A stretch of DNA of 64,000 nucleotides, taken from positions 1,315,001 to 1,379,000 of the forward strand of contig NZ_JAMZDX010000001.1 of the NCBI RefSeq assembly GCF_024172095.1, read 5' to 3'. Shown in pieces: positions 13,091-19,472 of the stretch. Position numbers and translations under genes: made by a program. The first letter of the stretch is position 1, and every line of letters starts with the position of its first letter. The stretch comes from Kitasatospora cinereorecta. Lineage in GTDB: Bacteria; Actinomycetota; Actinomycetes; Streptomycetales; Streptomycetaceae. A model generated the notes under the pieces. The model was not told the origin of the DNA. It saw only the letters and a program-made list of their open reading frames with translations, and did no database searches.

Positions 13091-13603
13091 TCAGCGGGGA
13101 GGGGTCTCCTCCTCCGGGGCGAAGAGTGCGCTGTAGACGGTGGGGCGGCCGACGTCCGGCAGTGCGAGGTCGACCGGGTCGGTGAGTTGGGCCGGGGAGA
13201 GGAGCTTCAGGCCGTGCCGCGCGAGCAGGCGCAGCACCTCGGGCTCGACGGGACCGGAGTCGTCCGCGTCCGGGCCGACGAGGTCCAGCCCGCCGTCCGC
13301 GCGGGCCCGGCCGAGCAGGGCGTACGGCCCGACCATCGACAGCCGGACGACCAGCGCGGGGTCGGCCTCCAGCAGGTAGCTGAAGCAGACCTCGCAGTTG
13401 ATGTCCGTGTCGTCGGTCAGCTCGCCCAGCGCGGCGAGTTCGGCGACCAGCGGTGCGTAGGGCCGGGTCCGCTCGACGGTGCGGGCGAAGGCCCGCTGCG
13501 GGCGGGCGGGATCGCCGTAGGCGTCCCGGACGCGGGCCATGAGCTCGCGCCGGGCGTTCCACGGCCAGGGTGACTCGGTGCGGCGGGGCCGCTCTGCTGC
13601 CAT
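13091..13603 (-). CDS. putative immunity protein of the Rhs toxin
   Basis: This 170-aa soluble protein matches no family I recognise. It has a basic N-terminus (RRTESPWPWNARRELMARVR) and a central CEVCFSYLLEADPALVVRLS segment. The C-terminal half is Leu/Asp/Pro-rich (EVLRLLARHGLKLLSPAQLT). The immunity call is from position only. It starts 11 bases after the stop of the rhs gene on the same strand, directly behind the variable toxin tip, which is where cognate immunity genes of polymorphic toxins sit. The start is the ATG at 13603. Confidence 0.6.
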   Translation of the reverse strand: MAAERPRRTESPWPWNARRELMARVRDAYGDPARPQRAFARTVERTRPYAPLVAELAALGELTDDTDINCEVCFSYLLEADPALVVRLSMVGPYALLGRARADGGLDLVGPDADDSGPVEPEVLRLLARHGLKLLSPAQLTDPVDLALPDVGRPTVYSALFAPEEETPPR

Positions 13604-13614
13604 GACCGCCGATC

Positions 13615-16600
13615 CTAGTGCTCGCGACCCGCGGGGTGACCGTGGATCTTGCCGCCCCCGTCCATGTGGACGCGGACCTTGGTCTGCCAACCGCCGTTGG
13701 GTCCGCGGCCGACCGGTTGGCCGTACTCGTGGTCGCGGACGTTCGGACGTCCCGGGACCGGCGTGCCGTTGTCCCACGCGTGCTGGGCGTACGCGTCCGC
13801 CTCGGCGCGGTTGGCGAACGCCGAGGTCGGCGTTCCATTGGCGATCCGTTCCCGGTACTCCTTGGTGCCGAGGACGTGCTGGTCCTGCTTCTGCCGGGAG
13901 ACGTGCGGCGACAGGCCGAGCGGGTCGGACCAGGTGTGCGGGTTGTGGACGTAGCCGTCCGGATTGGGCGCGGGGGCGAGCCCGAGCGGGTCCGGCGAGG
14001 TGTACCGGGCGGTCTCCGGGTCGTAGTAGCGGTGGACGTTGTAGTGGAGCCGGCTTTCCGGGTCGAAGTACTGGCCGGGGAAGCGCAGCGGGGTGTAGGT
14101 GGTGCTCTCGCTGGGCCAGGTGGTGTTGCCCCAGAGGGTGGGGGTGGCCCGCCAGGCGATGCTTTCGGAGACCGGGTCCACCAGCTCGGTCGGACTGCCG
14201 ACCAGGTCGGTGACGATGGCGAAGAACCGCCGGTCGATCCGCTGCTGCTCGCCGTCGGCCGACGAGGTCGCGATCGTCTCGCTCTGGGCGACCGGGTGGA
14301 GCCCCCGGTGGTCCCAGCTGAGCGTGTGCGGCCCCGGCAGGTAGGCGGCCCGGGTGGTCTGCTCGACCAGGGTGGACCCGTCCCAGGTGAAGTCGGTCCG
14401 CTCGCCGCTCGGCGTGCCGTCGGGTGCGAGCCGCTCCTTCGCGACGCGGCGGCCCATCGGGTCGTAGCGGTAGTGCCAGCGGGCGCCGTCGGGGGTGGTG
14501 AGGTGGGTCAGCCGGTTCTCGGCGTCCCAGGTGTACTGCCATGTGTCGGGCTTGCGGGAGAGCCGCGTGACCTGCCGCAGGGTGGTGCGGCCGGCGGCGT
14601 CGTATTCGTAGCGGATCCGGCCGGCGCCGACGAGCTGCGTCCCGGCATAGGTCCGCGGGCCGACGGCCGCCGCGGTCGCCCCCGTGGCCGGCCAGTGGGC
14701 CTCGGTCGGGTTGCCGGCGGGGTCGTAGGCGTAGCGCTCGCTCCAGCCGGCCGCCTCGACCGAGGTCACCTGTCCCACCGCGTCGAGCCGGAAGTCGCGT
14801 CGGCCGGCCAACGTGTCCTCGATGCCGATCACATTGCCGTCGGGGCGGTAGGTGTAGGTGCGGTGTTGGAGGTCACTGTGGGCGGCGCCCGTGGTCCGCA
14901 GGGTCTGCGCGGTGAGGCGGCTGCGGGCGTCCCACGCGCTGTCGAGGGCCAGGCCGGCCCCGTAGGAGCGCCGGAGTTCGCGGCCGGCGGCGTCGTACGT
15001 GAAGCCCAGGGCGCCGTCGGGCGTGGTGAGCCCGATCGGCCGCCCGGCCGGGTCGTAGCTCCAGGCAGCGGTGTGGCCGGCGGGGGTGGTGCGGTGGGTG
15101 CGCCGGCCCAGCGCGTCCCAGGTCTGGTGCAGGGTGCGGCCGTTGACCGTTTCGCTGAGGACGTTGCCGAGCGCGTCGACGGTCCGGGCGACGTCGGCGT
15201 CGTCGTTCACGGCCCGCACGAGGTGGCCGGCGGTGTCGTAGGCGTAGTGGGTGGTGCATCCGGCCGCGTCCTTCGTCGTCGTCCGGCCGAGCGCGTCGTA
15301 CGCGTAACCGGTCCGCTGGCCCAGCGGGTCGACGAGAGCGGCGAGTTGGCCGGCCGCGTCGAACTCGTAGCGGAGGGAGCGGCCGTGGAAGTCGCGCTCC
15401 GACACGACCCGCCCGGCGGCGTCGTAGCCGTACTCCCACTGCCGGCCGAGCGGGTCGGTGACCGCAGCGAGCTGCATGTGGGCGTTGTACGTGAAGCCGA
15501 TCCGGGCGCCGTCGGGCGTGGTGCGGGCCGCGACCTGTTCGAAGTGGGTGTATTCGAAGGTGGTGGTCTGCCCGAGTTGGTCGGTGTGGGTGAGGAGGTT
15601 GCCCTCGCCGTCGTGGGTCCAGCTCTCGGTGGTGCCGTCGGGGGCGGTGCGGGTGGCCGGGTGGCCTTCGACGGTCCAGGTGGTGGTGGTGACGGCGCCG
15701 AGCGGGTCGGTGACGGTACTGGTGCGGCCGAAGGCGTCGTAGGTGTAGCGGGTGGTGGCGCCGGTGGGGTCGGTGACCTCGAGGGGGAGTCCGGCGGGGT
15801 TGCAGTGGATGGTGGTGGTGTGGCCGAGGGCGTCGGTCACCGTGGTGGGGTGGCCGCGGTGGTCGTACGTCCAGGTGGTGGTGGCGCCGAGGGGGTCGGT
15901 CAGGGCGGTGCGCAGCCCGGTGTCGTCGTAGGTCTGGTGCCAGGTGGCGCCGCCGGGTTCGGCGACGGTGACGGGGAGGCTGAGGCGGTCGGCGTAGGTG
16001 GCGGTGGTGCGGTGGCCGTCCGGGCGAGTGACGGACACGAGGTCGCCGGCGCCGTCGTACGCGTAGCTGGTGGTCCGGCCGAGAGGGTCGGTCTCGACCA
16101 GGAGGCGGTCGTACGCGTCGCGTTCGGTGTGGGTGGTGTGGCCCAGGGGGTCGGTGATGGCGGTGATCTGGGCGTCGTCGTTGACGGTGTAGGTGGTGGT
16201 GTGGCCGAGGGCGTTGGTCTCGGTGTGGGTTCTGAGGCCGGTGGCGGGCTCCGGGTCGCCGTAGGTGAAGCGGAAGCGCAGGGCGCCGTCGGTGCCGCCT
16301 TCGTCGGTGACGCGGTCGAGGGCGTCGTAGGTATAGGCGTACTGGGAGTTGTTGCGGTCGGTCCAGGAGAGGATGCGGCCGCTGTTGTCGTTGGCGAAGC
16401 GCATGGGCTTGCCGGAGGAGTTGTAGACGGAGCTGAGGTGGCCGTCGGTGTAGCCGTAGCGCAGCAGGAGGGCGTCGCCGCCGGTGTCGGTGGCGTGGGC
16501 GAGGCGCAGGGCGGTGATGCGGTCGGCGTCGACGGTGACCAGGAGTTGATAGCCGCCGGAATGGGTGATGGAGAGCGGGACGCCGTCCTCGTCGTGGGCG

Positions 16601-17340
16601 AGGGTGTAGTGGCGACCGTGGCGGTCGCGGACCGTGGTGAGGAGGGCCTCGGTGCCGTCGGGGGTCGGGGTGAACTCCTTGACCAGGCCGGTGGACGGGT
16701 CGGTGACGGTGTACAGGCCGTCGACGAGGTCGAGTTCGTGGCGGGATCCGGCGGAGGCGAGGACCGGGTCACCGGGTTCGGGGTGGGGGTAGGCCTGGGT
16801 GATCCGGTCCGGGCGGATGTGGACGACGCCCTGCTCGTCGATCTCCAGCCGTTCGTCGAAGGTGCACACCCACTTGGGGCCCATCCACCGCCCGGCGAGG
16901 TAGCCGGAGTCGAAGCTGCGGGTGAACTCCAGCGGCAGGGAGCCGGGAAGAGTGGCGTCGACCTGGTCGATGTACATCCGCCCGGTCGCCATGTCGACGG
17001 GTTCGCCGCCGCCGCAGCGGGTGTCGTGGGCACGGCCCTCGGTGCGAGGACTGTGGACCTGCTCGCGGCCCCGGCCCTTGGGGTGGGAGGTGCCGCGCGG
17101 GCCGTGGCCGCCGGAGCCGGCGCGGGGGTGGGGGACGCCCTTGCCGCCGTGGCCGCTGAGGATCTTCTCGAGGTCCTTGGCGTGCTTGGCCTCGACCTCG
17201 CGGGTGTTGTGGGCGACCTTCTTGAGGTTGTCGCCGGCCTTGCGGTAGAAGCTCTTCAGGGCCTTGCCGGCGTCCTCGGCCAGGGTCTTGCCGAGCTTCT
17301 GGGCGCCGTGTTCGAGCGCCTTGACGATCTGGTTGCTCAT
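13615..17340 (-). CDS. Rhs/YD-repeat polymorphic toxin
   Basis: This 1241-aa protein has three parts. Residues 1-60 are a Lys/Glu-rich helix without signal peptide, followed by a Gly/His/Arg-rich linker. A DUF6531-type entry motif (CGGGEPVDMATGRMY, about 109-123) precedes a long array of RHS/YD repeats (for example TTSYAYDGAGDLVSVTRPDG). The Rhs core ends with RYTSPDPLGLAPAPNPDGYV and a second DPLGLSP. The last 96 residues are the toxin tip, with QDQHVLGTKEYRERIANG, TPTSAF and a C-terminal GKIHGHP. The tip resembles small His-containing nuclease-type tips; I associate it with the Ntox50/BECR-like group from memory, unverified. The upstream CpnT-N-like gene overlaps by 4 bp and a putative immunity gene follows. 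Confidence 0.9.
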   Translation of the reverse strand: MSNQIVKALEHGAQKLGKTLAEDAGKALKSFYRKAGDNLKKVAHNTREVEAKHAKDLEKILSGHGGKGVPHPRAGSGGHGPRGTSHPKGRGREQVHSPRTEGRAHDTRCGGGEPVDMATGRMYIDQVDATLPGSLPLEFTRSFDSGYLAGRWMGPKWVCTFDERLEIDEQGVVHIRPDRITQAYPHPEPGDPVLASAGSRHELDLVDGLYTVTDPSTGLVKEFTPTPDGTEALLTTVRDRHGRHYTLAHDEDGVPLSITHSGGYQLLVTVDADRITALRLAHATDTGGDALLLRYGYTDGHLSSVYNSSGKPMRFANDNSGRILSWTDRNNSQYAYTYDALDRVTDEGGTDGALRFRFTYGDPEPATGLRTHTETNALGHTTTYTVNDDAQITAITDPLGHTTHTERDAYDRLLVETDPLGRTTSYAYDGAGDLVSVTRPDGHRTTATYADRLSLPVTVAEPGGATWHQTYDDTGLRTALTDPLGATTTWTYDHRGHPTTVTDALGHTTTIHCNPAGLPLEVTDPTGATTRYTYDAFGRTSTVTDPLGAVTTTTWTVEGHPATRTAPDGTTESWTHDGEGNLLTHTDQLGQTTTFEYTHFEQVAARTTPDGARIGFTYNAHMQLAAVTDPLGRQWEYGYDAAGRVVSERDFHGRSLRYEFDAAGQLAALVDPLGQRTGYAYDALGRTTTKDAAGCTTHYAYDTAGHLVRAVNDDADVARTVDALGNVLSETVNGRTLHQTWDALGRRTHRTTPAGHTAAWSYDPAGRPIGLTTPDGALGFTYDAAGRELRRSYGAGLALDSAWDARSRLTAQTLRTTGAAHSDLQHRTYTYRPDGNVIGIEDTLAGRRDFRLDAVGQVTSVEAAGWSERYAYDPAGNPTEAHWPATGATAAAVGPRTYAGTQLVGAGRIRYEYDAAGRTTLRQVTRLSRKPDTWQYTWDAENRLTHLTTPDGARWHYRYDPMGRRVAKERLAPDGTPSGERTDFTWDGSTLVEQTTRAAYLPGPHTLSWDHRGLHPVAQSETIATSSADGEQQRIDRRFFAIVTDLVGSPTELVDPVSESIAWRATPTLWGNTTWPSESTTYTPLRFPGQYFDPESRLHYNVHRYYDPETARYTSPDPLGLAPAPNPDGYVHNPHTWSDPLGLSPHVSRQKQDQHVLGTKEYRERIANGTPTSAFANRAEADAYAQHAWDNGTPVPGRPNVRDHEYGQPVGRGPNGGWQTKVRVHMDGGGKIHGHPAGREH

Positions 17341-18059
17341 TCGAAGCTCACCCCGGCGATCTTGGACTGGAACGCCTGCGCGTGACCGGCGACGGTCTCG
17401 GCGTGGTCGTGCATCATCCGGGCGTGGTCGTCGAGGGCGTCCGGGTCGATCCGGAAACCGGTGCCGCCACCGCCGCCGCTCACCCCGAGCGCGGACTCCG
17501 CCGCCTGGAACACCAGCCCGGACACGGCGTTCGCCACGGTGTCGATCAACGGTTCGATCGCGGCCTCGACCACCTGGGCGATGATGTACTGCTCCAGTTG
17601 CTGTTCCAGGTAGTTGATCAGGCGCTTCGCGGTCTCCTCGATCAGGATGACGGCGGCCTCGGCCGCGCCGAAGGTGGCCACCGCGGCGGCCTGATCGGCG
17701 ACGAACGCCGCAGCCAGACCGATGAGTTCACCTATCGTCTCGACCTTCATCGCCACGATCACGTCGGCCGCGACGTCCAGCGCGTCCGCCACCACGTGGC
17801 AGGCCTGCACCAGTTGGGTGAGGTGCTGCTCGGAGACCGACGCCCACTTGGCGAGCAGTGCCTCGTAGGAGGCTCCCTCGTACGCCTGGCCCAGCTGGTG
17901 GACCGTTGCGGTGGACTCCTGGTGCGCGGACTCCACGTTCTGTGCGAACTCCCGTACGTGCGAGGCGAACTCCCGCACGCTGTCCTCGTTCACCGTCGGC
18001 CAGTTGATACCGATGAACGACAGAAACGACACCACTTCGCCAGGCAGCTCTATTGCCAC
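17337..18059 (-). CDS. WXG100-like / CpnT N-terminal-type secretion partner
   Basis: This 240-aa protein has an N-terminal helical hairpin (WPTVNEDSVREFASHVREFA, then GASYEALLAKWASVSEQHL). It continues with Ala/Val-rich helices (ETIGELIGLAAAFVADQAAA, then RLINYLEQQLEQYIIAQVVE). This is the layout of the CpnT-like N-terminal domain that targets toxins to type VII (ESX) secretion in actinobacteria. A Gly-rich stretch and a WXG-like helical tail (DDHARMMHDHAETVAGHAQA) follow. The GTG at 18059 has GGGGGAGGA upstream. Its TGA overlaps the rhs ATG (ATGA), so the two are coupled. Such domains are often fused to the toxin; here they are separate proteins. Confidence 0.75.
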   Translation of the reverse strand: MAIELPGEVVSFLSFIGINWPTVNEDSVREFASHVREFAQNVESAHQESTATVHQLGQAYEGASYEALLAKWASVSEQHLTQLVQACHVVADALDVAADVIVAMKVETIGELIGLAAAFVADQAAAVATFGAAEAAVILIEETAKRLINYLEQQLEQYIIAQVVEAAIEPLIDTVANAVSGLVFQAAESALGVSGGGGGTGFRIDPDALDDHARMMHDHAETVAGHAQAFQSKIAGVSFE

Positions 18060-18266
18060 GACGCGTCCTCCCCCGACGGTGACCAGATGCGGTCAAGACC
18101 GTAGTGCAGGACGGTGTCCGAGGCTCATCGTTTGGCGCAATTATCACTGCCTCGCGGCCAGTTGGAGATCGGGCCCGGCGAGTCGGTCGAGCGTGTCCCG
18201 CCGTGCCGCGGGGCGGGGAGCGGTGGCACGGTAGCGGGGCACGTAACGTGCGGTTCCCGGTTCCGG
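18060..18266. promoter_or_regulatory. intergenic region: toxin-operon promoter and TerD-side hairpins
   Basis: An AT-rich patch on the minus strand gives a -10-like GATAAT at 18140-18145, about 80 bases before the WXG-like gene, with no clear -35. Nearer the terD-like stop are two inverted repeats: CCGTGCC (18201-18207) with GGCACGG (18225-18231), and GCACGT-A-ACGTGC at 18239-18251. They may act as the terD-like terminator. Confidence 0.4.
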
Positions 18267-19472
18267 TCAGAGCATCGAGGCGGCCGGCTTCACCATGGCG
18301 CGGGCGGTCTTGGCGTCCACGTACTCGCCGATCGCGGTCATCACCCACTCGCCGGAGAACTGGCGGACCAGCTTGCACATCGCCACGCCGGTGCGCGCCT
18401 CGGCGTGGGTGAGGTCGAAGCGGACCAGTTCCTCGCCGCTGGAGGCGTCCAGCAGGCGGCAGTAGGCGTTCTTGACGTCGGTGAACTTCTGGCCGGAGAA
18501 GGAGTTCACCACGAAGACCAGGCCGCAGACCTCGGCCGGGACGCCCTCCAGGTGGACGGTGATCGCCTCGTCGTCGCCGGCGCCCTCGCCGGTGAGGTTG
18601 TCGCCCGAGTGGACGATCGCGCCGTTGAAGATGGACAGCTTCATGAACCAGGCCGTCTCGACCTTGTTGCGCTGGGCGTCGAAGGCGATCACCGAGGCGT
18701 CCAGGTCGATGTTGCGGCCCCGGCCGGCCGGCTCCCAGCCGAGGCCCATCCGGACCGAGGCGAGGAAGGGCTTGCCGTTCTTCTCCAGCGAGACGGAGCC
18801 GCCCTTGACCAGGTTGACCCGGCCCTTGTCCAGGGTGATCCGGCCGACCGCCGGCGGCGCGGAGGGCATCGGCGGCGGCCCGGCGGATGCGGCGGAGGGA
18901 GCTGCGGGGGCCGGGGGAGCAGTGGTGGGAGCGGTGGCCGCGGGGGTGGCGGGGGTGGCGGCGGGCTCGTCCTCCACGGTGACGCCGAAGTCGGTGGCGA
19001 TGCCGGCCAGCCCGTTGGCGTAGCCCTGGCCGACCGCGCGGACCTTCCACTCGCTGCCGCGGCGGTAGACCTCGACCACCACCAGCGCGGTCTCCCGGCT
19101 GAGCCGGGGCGGGGTGAAGGTGACCAGCTCGCGGCCGGTGTCGGCGTCGCGGACGGTGGCGGTGGGCTCGGTGCCGGCGAAGGTGGCGGACGCGTCGTCC
19201 AGGCTGGCGGTCACCACGATCTTGCTGATGTCGCCGGGGACGGCGGCGGTGTCCACGGTGATCGCGTCCGGCGTGCCGCCGGAGGCCGGCCGGTGGGTGA
19301 CCCCGGGGCCGTTCGGGGCGTTGAAGAAGACGAAGTCGGCGTCGGAGCGCACCTTGCCGGCGTCGGTCAGCAGCAGGCCGGAGACGTCCAGCCGCTTGGG
19401 CGCCGTCACCTCGACCGTCACTCTCGAGGCCGCGAGCGGCGCATTTCCACCCTGCGTCAGGACCGTCGTCAC
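18267..19472 (-). CDS. tandem TerD-domain protein
   Basis: This 401-aa cytoplasmic protein carries two TerD-type beta-sandwich domains. The first is residues 1-165 (SDADFVFFNAPNGPGVTHRP; ALVVVEVYRRGSEWKVRAVG). The second is about 205-401 (ITLDKGRVNLVKGGSVSLEK; ETAWFMKLSIFNGAIVHSGD; ARTGVAMCKLVRQFSGEWVM). They are joined by a 40-residue Pro/Ala/Thr linker. TerD domains bind Ca2+ and belong to the tellurite/stress response network, widely expanded in Streptomyces. No other ter genes are nearby. The GTG at 19472 is preceded by GGAGGAG. Confidence 0.88.
   Translation of the reverse strand: MTTVLTQGGNAPLAASRVTVEVTAPKRLDVSGLLLTDAGKVRSDADFVFFNAPNGPGVTHRPASGGTPDAITVDTAAVPGDISKIVVTASLDDASATFAGTEPTATVRDADTGRELVTFTPPRLSRETALVVVEVYRRGSEWKVRAVGQGYANGLAGIATDFGVTVEDEPAATPATPAATAPTTAPPAPAAPSAASAGPPPMPSAPPAVGRITLDKGRVNLVKGGSVSLEKNGKPFLASVRMGLGWEPAGRGRNIDLDASVIAFDAQRNKVETAWFMKLSIFNGAIVHSGDNLTGEGAGDDEAITVHLEGVPAEVCGLVFVVNSFSGQKFTDVKNAYCRLLDASSGEELVRFDLTHAEARTGVAMCKLVRQFSGEWVMTAIGEYVDAKTARAMVKPAASML

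What the first reader, a model, noticed from the sequence alone, without database searches (positions are those of the whole stretch)
13615..18059. Split type VII-targeted Rhs toxin: CpnT-N-like partner and Rhs protein as overlapping separate genes
Seen: a 240-aa WXG-like/CpnT N-terminal-type protein whose stop overlaps the start of a 1241-aa Rhs protein (ATGA). The Rhs protein has no signal peptide but starts with a charged helix. Known: CpnT-like N-domains are often fused to the toxin and direct ESX secretion. Inference: here the targeting domain is a separate co-translated protein that presumably binds the Rhs N-terminal helix and carries it to a type VII apparatus, an uncommon arrangement.
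Basis: partly seen in the sequence, partly recalled or inferred. Interest (0 to 1): 0.72.

Follow-up and report, generated by a model that had tools for sequence, protein, structure and literature searches.

The report
Two-gene type VII toxin targeting module
In this soil actinobacterium a large toxin and the export adaptor that probably carries it are made from two overlapping genes, and the gene boundary cuts through one small helical domain; the arrangement is common in its relatives, so it is a new variant of a known export strategy rather than a rarity.

Summary
On the minus strand, gene A (18059-17337, 240 aa, WXG100_2/CpnT-N-like) overlaps gene B (17340-13615, 1241-aa Rhs toxin) by ATGA. 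The window lies in a Kitasatospora-like genome with a complete type VII locus. "Uncommon" is wrong: seven such pairs lie in this one genome, and 77 of 86 gene-A places examined (mostly Streptomycetaceae) have an exact 4-nt overlap plus the same gene-B head. The head is shared by Rhs toxins and short non-Rhs toxins, so it is a swappable adaptor. Profile comparisons align gene A's tail and gene B's head, in order, to two neighbouring helices of one single-chain family in the same genome: the gene boundary cuts a WXG-like helical hairpin. Best reading: A and the B head co-fold into a composite export domain for the type VII apparatus; the Rhs shell carries a variable tip, here possibly a YxiD/Ntox50-like RNase (weak), with a presumed immunity gene next to it. 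No complex could be modelled and nothing was tested in cells. The principle (toxin plus cognate helical targeting partner) is known from Lap/LXG, LxpABC/LrhA and EsxEF/CpnT; the split-hairpin form in streptomycetes was not found in the literature searched.

The parts
18065..18074 (-). putative ribosome-binding site of gene A (GGGGAGG-like)
   Evidence: read from the sequence
17337..18059 (-). gene A: 240-aa WXG100_2 / CpnT-N-like targeting partner
   Evidence: ORF; PF25547 E 1.8e-13 and PF06013 E 1.3e-11
17622..18011 (-). WXG100_2 domain of gene A (aa 17-146)
17340..17483 (-). gene A tail (last 48 aa): first helix of the split hairpin (GFRIDPDALDDHARMMHDHAETVAGHAQAF)
   Evidence: hhalign to the single-chain family P 97%, E 1e-10, 0 of 100 column shuffles as good
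17337..17340 (-). ATGA stop/start overlap of genes A and B
   Evidence: conserved in 77 of 86 gene-A places
17125..17340 (-). gene B head (aa 1-72): second helix of the split hairpin, with the conserved N-[T/H]-x-x-x-[D/E] site at aa 45-50
   Evidence: hhalign to the single-chain family P 95.5%, E 1.5e-8, 0 of 100 shuffles as good; acid at aa 50 in 77 of 77 heads
13615..17340 (-). gene B: 1241-aa Rhs toxin
16804..17007 (-). DUF6531 (aa 112-179), start of the Rhs shell
   Evidence: PF20148 E 2.9e-21
13912..16803 (-). Rhs/YD repeat shell, ending in the Rhs-associated core (aa 1069-1143)
   Evidence: PF05593, TIGR01643, TIGR03696
13618..13911 (-). variable C-terminal toxin tip (98 aa), weakly like the YxiD C-terminal RNase (Ntox50 type)
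   Evidence: homology to the paralogue ends at residue 1146; best PDB hit YxiD-CTD 9v8i, E 0.32
13091..13603 (-). 170-aa gene, presumed cognate immunity protein
   Evidence: position only; no family match; homologues in 2 of 240 genomes searched (own genome and one other)

Best explanation
Genes A and B make one antibacterial effector in two coupled pieces. Gene A supplies a CpnT/EspB-like WXG100_2 bundle plus the first helix of a second WXG-like hairpin. Gene B supplies the second helix of that hairpin as its first ~60 residues, joined through a flexible linker to an Rhs shell and a variable toxin tip. Coupled translation across ATGA makes the two chains together. They re-form the split hairpin, giving a composite export domain. 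EccC of the genome's single full type VII locus then recognises it, probably through the conserved acidic site N-[T/H]xxx[D/E] on the B helix, and exports the pair. The tip acts in a competitor cell, and the downstream 170-aa protein protects the producer. Shown by computation: domain content, conserved coupling, adaptor modularity, collinear homology to a single-chain version, presence of the apparatus. Inferred: complex formation, type VII export, the role of the acidic site, antibacterial action, RNase activity, immunity.
For: WXG100_2 and Rhs content. 4-nt overlap plus the same B head in 77 of 86 gene-A places. Of the first 57 heads, 40 belong to Rhs proteins and 17 to short non-Rhs proteins; two tested non-Rhs toxins carry an XOO_2897-like deaminase. 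A-tail and B-head profiles match adjacent, ordered stretches (columns 27-72 and 86-147) of one single-chain family: P 97% and 95.5%, 0 of 100 column shuffles as good for either. In the second pair family (L026-L029) the B head alone covers the hairpin; the type-A head matches its second half (P 94%, 0 of 100). The adaptor is homogenised as one unit across the gene boundary: against paralogue L031, DNA identity is 94-100% over gene A and about the first 90 codons of B, then 81-89% and down to 61-69%. In 22 within-genome Rhs-Rhs pairs, mean identity is A 82, B head 78, Rhs core 49, last 90 aa 23; head exceeds core in 19, A exceeds core in 20. EccB, EccC, EccD, MycP and two WXG100 genes in the genome; EccC in 70 of 70 genus members. 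A distant gene-A relative lies 2.5 kb from eccA in a full ESX locus on a Nocardia plasmid. Acid at aa 50 in 77 of 77 heads.
Against: No complex was predicted: the tool folds single chains, and the gene A model is poor (pLDDT 52.8, pTM 0.44) with no significant structural match (0 at E <= 0.001). The canonical Y of YxxxD/E is absent: 1 of 77 heads has Y, and 0 of 83 gene-A proteins have YxxxD/E at the end of the hairpin. The pair is not next to the type VII locus. EccC is nearly universal in the family (280 of 297), so its co-occurrence with gene A (68 of 69) proves little, and one gene-A genome lacks it at that threshold. The A-tail match to the second pair family is weak (P 56%, score 25.8 against a shuffle maximum of 21.1). 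Five of 63 gene-A places have no overlapping partner, three of them one related group (L117, L120, L123) with no head nearby.
Confidence: 0.7

Rival explanations
1. Gene A is a cytoplasmic chaperone or targeting factor like some Laps: it binds the B head, delivers the toxin to the apparatus and stays behind. The hairpin homology reflects ancestry, not a composite export signal.
For: Some Laps act as targeting factors and are not exported (passages of PMC9600955); 0 of 83 gene-A proteins have YxxxD/E at the hairpin end.
Against: In the single-chain family and in the Nocardia ESX-linked relative the A part is fused to the rest of the protein, so it would have to be exported with it. TlaA1/TlaA2 partners are co-secreted with their lipase toxin (passages of PMC10730906).
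Confidence: 0.3
2. Another export route: the pair is released by a contractile injection system or by lysis, and the helices serve Rhs assembly or oligomerisation.
For: The locus is not next to type VII genes; Rhs toxins use several routes in other bacteria (passages of PMC10327511).
Against: Gene A matches WXG100_2 and WXG100. The same head is used by short non-Rhs toxins that have no shell. ESX-linked relative in Nocardia.
Confidence: 0.12
3. The split is trivial: a frameshift or a neutral fission of a fused gene, with no role for the separate chain.
For: CpnT-like fused relatives exist in the same genus (L131-L147) and a single-chain hairpin family in the same genome.
Against: The 4-nt overlap is kept with ATGA, GTGA or TTGA starts in 77 of 86 places over 47-100% identity of gene A, so the separate start looks selected.
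Confidence: 0.08

Closest known systems
CpnT with EsxE/EsxF (Mycobacterium tuberculosis)
   Same: WXG100_2-type N-terminal secretion domain (family name recalled); toxin at the C terminus; small helical partners encoded upstream and needed for secretion (passages of PMC8092274)
   Different: In CpnT the domain is fused to the toxin and carries YxxxE at residue 88; here it is a separate 240-aa chain without that motif, and the cargo is an Rhs protein
LrhA Rhs toxin with LxpABC (Listeria, T7SSb)
   Same: Rhs toxin with a helical N terminus, small helical partners encoded upstream, immunity gene downstream, predicted intercalated helices (passages of PMC10327511)
   Different: Three small partners next to essC in T7SSb; here one large partner with its own WXG100_2 domain, T7SSa host, and a gene boundary inside a hairpin
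LXG toxins with Lap1/Lap2 (Streptococcus, T7SSb)
   Same: Cognate helical targeting factors bind the toxin's N-terminal helical domain; FxxxD export motif needed (passages of PMC9600955)
   Different: Motif is on the partner Lap1; here the conserved acidic site is on the toxin chain. Laps are ~100-aa hairpins, gene A is 240 aa
PE-PPE / EspB (mycobacterial T7SSa)
   Same: Two-chain or one-chain helical bundles as export domains; EspB was the structural template for the CpnT N-domain (passages of PMC8092274)
   Different: No significant sequence or structure match here; not toxins with Rhs shells
YxiD/YxxD tRNase toxin (Bacillus subtilis, Ntox50)
   Same: Tip resembles the YxiD C-terminal domain around H447 (H...T..Y...IANG...S.F); histidines are also present near the tip's C terminus (by eye)
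   Different: PDB match only E 0.32, no Pfam match at E <= 1, the K446 position is Q in the window

Membership tests
CpnT-N / WXG100_2 targeting domain | match to the family model above its cut-off | tested here: met
   PF25547 51.1 bits against a cut-off of 27
CpnT-N / WXG100_2 targeting domain | fusion to the toxin in one chain (as in CpnT) | tested here: not met
   separate gene with ATGA overlap; split in all 77 coupled places
CpnT-N / WXG100_2 targeting domain | YxxxD/E export motif after the first hairpin | tested here: not met
   0 of 83 gene-A proteins; the B head has [T/H]xxx[D/E] instead, acid in 77 of 77, Y in 1 of 77
Type VII (ESX) substrate | host genome encodes the apparatus | tested here: met
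   EccB, EccC, EccD, MycP, two WXG100 genes; no EccE recognised in that locus
Type VII (ESX) substrate | genetic link of the family to an ESX locus | tested here: inconclusive
   not in the window; one relative (36.9% identity) inside an ESX locus on a Nocardia plasmid; a second Nocardia plasmid shows no ecc gene in the 50 kb read
Type VII (ESX) substrate | secretion depends on EccC | not testable with these tools
   needs a secretion assay
Rhs polymorphic toxin | DUF6531, YD repeats, Rhs-associated core, variable tip | tested here: met
   homology to paralogue L031 ends at residue 1146
Rhs polymorphic toxin | cognate immunity gene downstream | tested here: inconclusive
   170-aa gene in the right place, no family match
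Lap/Lxp-type cognate targeting partner | helical protein encoded next to the toxin and binding its helical N terminus | tested here: inconclusive
   adjacency and conserved coupling met; binding not testable, only inferred from collinear homology
Ntox50 / YxiD-type RNase tip | match to the family model or to the solved YxiD-CTD | tested here: inconclusive
   no Pfam hit at E <= 1, PDB hit E 0.32, single-sequence model too poor to use (pLDDT 51.7)

The most novel reading that the evidence does not exclude
Streptomycetes build a type VII export signal by fragment complementation: one helix is donated by a reusable carrier and the other by the toxin, so neither chain is exportable alone. Near-identical carriers (99-100% between some paralogues of one genome) could serve several toxins in trans, giving a one-carrier, many-cargo system for Rhs and non-Rhs toxins.
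Probability: 0.35. Interest if true: 0.65.

Novelty: new variant of a known kind. Interest (0 to 1): 0.47.

Why it matters
Streptomycetes nearly all carry a type VII apparatus (EccC in 280 of 297 Streptomycetaceae genomes here). This family gives a large, testable set of candidate effectors: a carrier plus a toxin head that can be recognised by sequence. It also offers a natural split of a WXG-like hairpin, a clean way to ask what makes a type VII signal and whether it must be assembled from two chains.

Tried and rejected
Frameshift or sequencing error as the cause of the split: rejected by the conserved overlap. Fused CpnT-like genes as single-chain Rhs versions: the 1223-1754-aa frames found at 27-30% identity (L131-L147) are CpnT-like fusions with Ser/Gly-rich middles and essentially no YD motifs, so they are not Rhs fusions. 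Nocardia relatives as A-B fusions: they carry the A part and its tail but no B head or toxin that I could recognise.

Structure of gene A: model too weak, Foldseek without significant hits, PPE chains only at ranks 38, 41 and 47 with E about 0.5. PDB search by profile: no relevant hit. Toxin tip: no relatives in the 244 other genomes of the order that were searched, none in viral contigs or plasmids; single-sequence model unusable and not searched further. Search for single-chain relatives in viral contigs gave none. Co-occurrence of gene A with EccC is not informative because EccC is nearly universal.

Rows left out of counts. Type-A places: I fetched 60 of the matches listed (the strongest ones, one near a contig end and weaker ones left out) plus three of this genome. 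Profile test: of 63 type-A loci, 57 used (five without overlap, and L089, dropped). Single-chain candidates: of 14, 10 used (L155, L158, L161 gave no match; L156 lacks the second helix). Of the 42 named loci, 19 repeat loci already held; of the 23 new ones L203 ends at a contig end, L208 is broken and L211 is partly masked; the mechanical overlap test flags L208 and L211 too, and I set them aside. L089 is a rearranged locus with a remnant head at the overlap and a full head further downstream.
Full report
What is there. The two genes are on the minus strand. Gene A runs 18059-17337 (240 aa, GTG) and gene B 17340-13615 (1241 aa, ATG); they share ATGA at 17340-17337. Gene A matches WXG100_2 (PF25547, E 1.8e-13, aa 17-146) and WXG100 (PF06013, E 1.3e-11). 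Gene B matches RHS_repeat, DUF6531 and the Rhs-associated core. Eleven nucleotides after gene B a 170-aa gene follows (13603-13091) without any family match. Upstream lies a double-TerD gene. The window belongs to an 8.64-Mb genome in 9 contigs. The closest named relatives of gene A are in Kitasatospora species, so the genome is probably a Kitasatospora; the organism itself is unnamed.

It is not uncommon. PF25547 has 14 places in this genome. Seven are split pairs with a 4-nt overlap: L026, L027, L028, L029, L030, L031 and the window. Gene A is found at E <= 1e-10 in 49 of 70 genomes searched in the genus and at E <= 1e-40 in 69 of 297 of the family, in 7 of 17 genera. I took 60 type-A places from the first list plus the three in this genome. 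Of these 63, 58 have an exact 4-nt overlap (ATGA 41, GTGA 16, TTGA 1); one of the 58 (L089) is rearranged, leaving 57. Of 42 named loci, 23 are not repeats of these, and 20 of the 23 have the overlap and the head (I set aside L203, contig end, L208, broken, and L211, partly masked). Together: 77 of 86.

The head is a module. The first ~60 residues of gene B are conserved whatever follows. Of the 57 heads of the first set, 40 are on Rhs proteins and 17 on short proteins of 217-453 aa without Rhs repeats (counted by YD motifs). Two non-Rhs toxins of this genome, L030 (type A) and L029 (type B), carry an XOO_2897-like deaminase. In 22 within-genome pairs of Rhs loci the mean identities are: gene A 82, its last 48 residues 76, B head 78, Rhs core 49, last 90 residues 23. 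Gene A exceeds the core in 20 of 22 and the head in 19 of 22. Between the window and its paralogue L031, DNA identity is 94-100% over gene A and the first ~90 codons of gene B, then 81-89%, falling to 61-69% in the middle and rising to 84% at the end of the core; protein homology stops at residue 1146. So the unit that is kept and homogenised crosses the gene boundary, and the tip is what varies.

The gene boundary cuts a hairpin. The genome also has single-chain proteins of ~500 aa (L033, L035) that start with WXG100_2 and continue into a helix beginning GFGID or GFGLD and then a second helix. Against a profile of 10 such proteins, the type-A tail (57 sequences) aligns to columns 27-72 (P 97%, E 1e-10, score 55.8) and the B head (57 sequences) to columns 86-147 (P 95.5%, E 1.5e-8, score 48.6). 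In each test 0 of 100 column-shuffled profiles reached the observed score (maxima 17.8 and 19.4), and the reversed profiles scored 11 and 14. The order is collinear and the boundary falls between the two helices. In the second family of split pairs (12 loci read, 11 with the 4-nt overlap, 10 with an intact gene B: 6 Rhs, 4 short), gene B carries the whole hairpin: the type-A head matches its second half (P 94%, score 42.9, shuffle maximum 17.7), while the type-A tail matches its first half only weakly (P 56%, score 25.8, shuffle maximum 21.1). Two of these heads also match WXG100 weakly over nearly its full length (E 0.003, below Pfam's cut-off). The two pair families are thus cut at different places of the same domain.

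Signal. Canonical type VII substrates carry YxxxD/E after a hairpin; in CpnT it is YxxxE at residue 88 (passages of PMC8092274). Gene A has none at its hairpin end (0 of 83). The B head has N-[T/H]-x-x-x-[D/E]: the acid is D in 54 and E in 23 of 77 heads, the Y position is T 41, H 28, V 6, L 1, Y 1. All 10 intact type-B heads have HxxxD/E. FxxxD in Lap1 is the nearest published variant (passages of PMC9600955). That this site is the export signal is my inference.

Type VII link. The genome has EccB, EccC, EccD, MycP and two WXG100 genes in one locus. EccC is present in 70 of 70 genus members and in 280 of 297 family members; 68 of 69 gene-A genomes have it, which is not discriminating. A gene-A relative (36.9% identity over the full length) lies within a complete ESX locus (eccA, eccB, eccC, PPE, WXG100, espG, eccD, mycP, eccE) on plasmid NZ_CP108384.1 of Nocardia sp. 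NBC_01327. There it is a single 593-aa protein with a Pro/Ser-rich end and no toxin that I recognised. A second Nocardia plasmid relative shows no ecc gene in the 50 kb read.

Toxin. The tip has one weak relative in the PDB, the YxiD C-terminal RNase (9v8i, E 0.32), whose H447, H521, H528, K446 and K524 are needed for tRNA cleavage (passages of PMC12700104). H447 appears to have a counterpart in the printed alignment (numbering matched by me); the preceding K is Q. Histidines near the tip's C terminus may match the other two, by eye only. Of 245 genomes searched in the order, only the window's own has the tip. RNase activity is a lead, not a result.

Mechanism. Most likely A and B are made together by coupled translation, co-fold through the split hairpin, and leave as a pair through the ESX apparatus; the Rhs shell holds the tip until delivery. 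How the tip enters the target is unknown. Structure prediction could not test this: gene A gave pLDDT 52.8 and no significant Foldseek match, and complexes were outside the tool.

Known or new. That type VII toxins need cognate helical partners is established (Lap/LXG in PMC9600955; TlaA1/A2 in PMC10730906; LxpABC and the Rhs toxin LrhA in PMC10327511; Rhs linked to T7SSa and T7SSb in PMC11217815; WXG and RHS domains listed together in PMC3482391; all seen as passages). A Streptomyces paper on exported alarmone synthetases names a type VII 'targeting factor' gene beside an LXG toxin of Amycolatopsis (passages of PMC12691689). I found no description of split WXG100_2/Rhs pairs in Streptomycetaceae in the searches (search listings), which cover open-licence PubMed Central only. 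Hence: new variant of a known kind.

Noticed in passing
window 18267-19472 (-): Double-TerD protein directly upstream of gene A; whether it is part of the operon was not tested.
   Followed up: no
L027:6519-11479 and L028:2181-7159: Two almost identical type-B split pairs (gene A 98% identical, same toxin end) on different contigs of this genome, one near a gene that looks like a transposase by eye: a recent duplication.
   Followed up: partly
L131-L147: Seventeen frames of 1223-1754 aa that look like CpnT-type fusions (WXG100_2, long Ser/Gly middle, variable end) in the same genus, a separate large family of presumed type VII toxins.
   Followed up: partly
L117, L120, L123: A related group of gene-A proteins (ending SGNIAGLDF) without an overlapping partner or any credible head downstream: solo carriers, function unclear.
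   Followed up: partly
L089 (gene A stop near base 1120 of the oriented locus): Gene A is followed by a remnant head at the overlap and about 700 bases later by a full head with its own long frame, as if another toxin had been placed behind the same carrier.
   Followed up: partly
L215:1225-1959: A 40%-identical relative of the presumed immunity protein in another genome of the family; no neighbouring toxin was recognised in the stretch read.
   Followed up: partly
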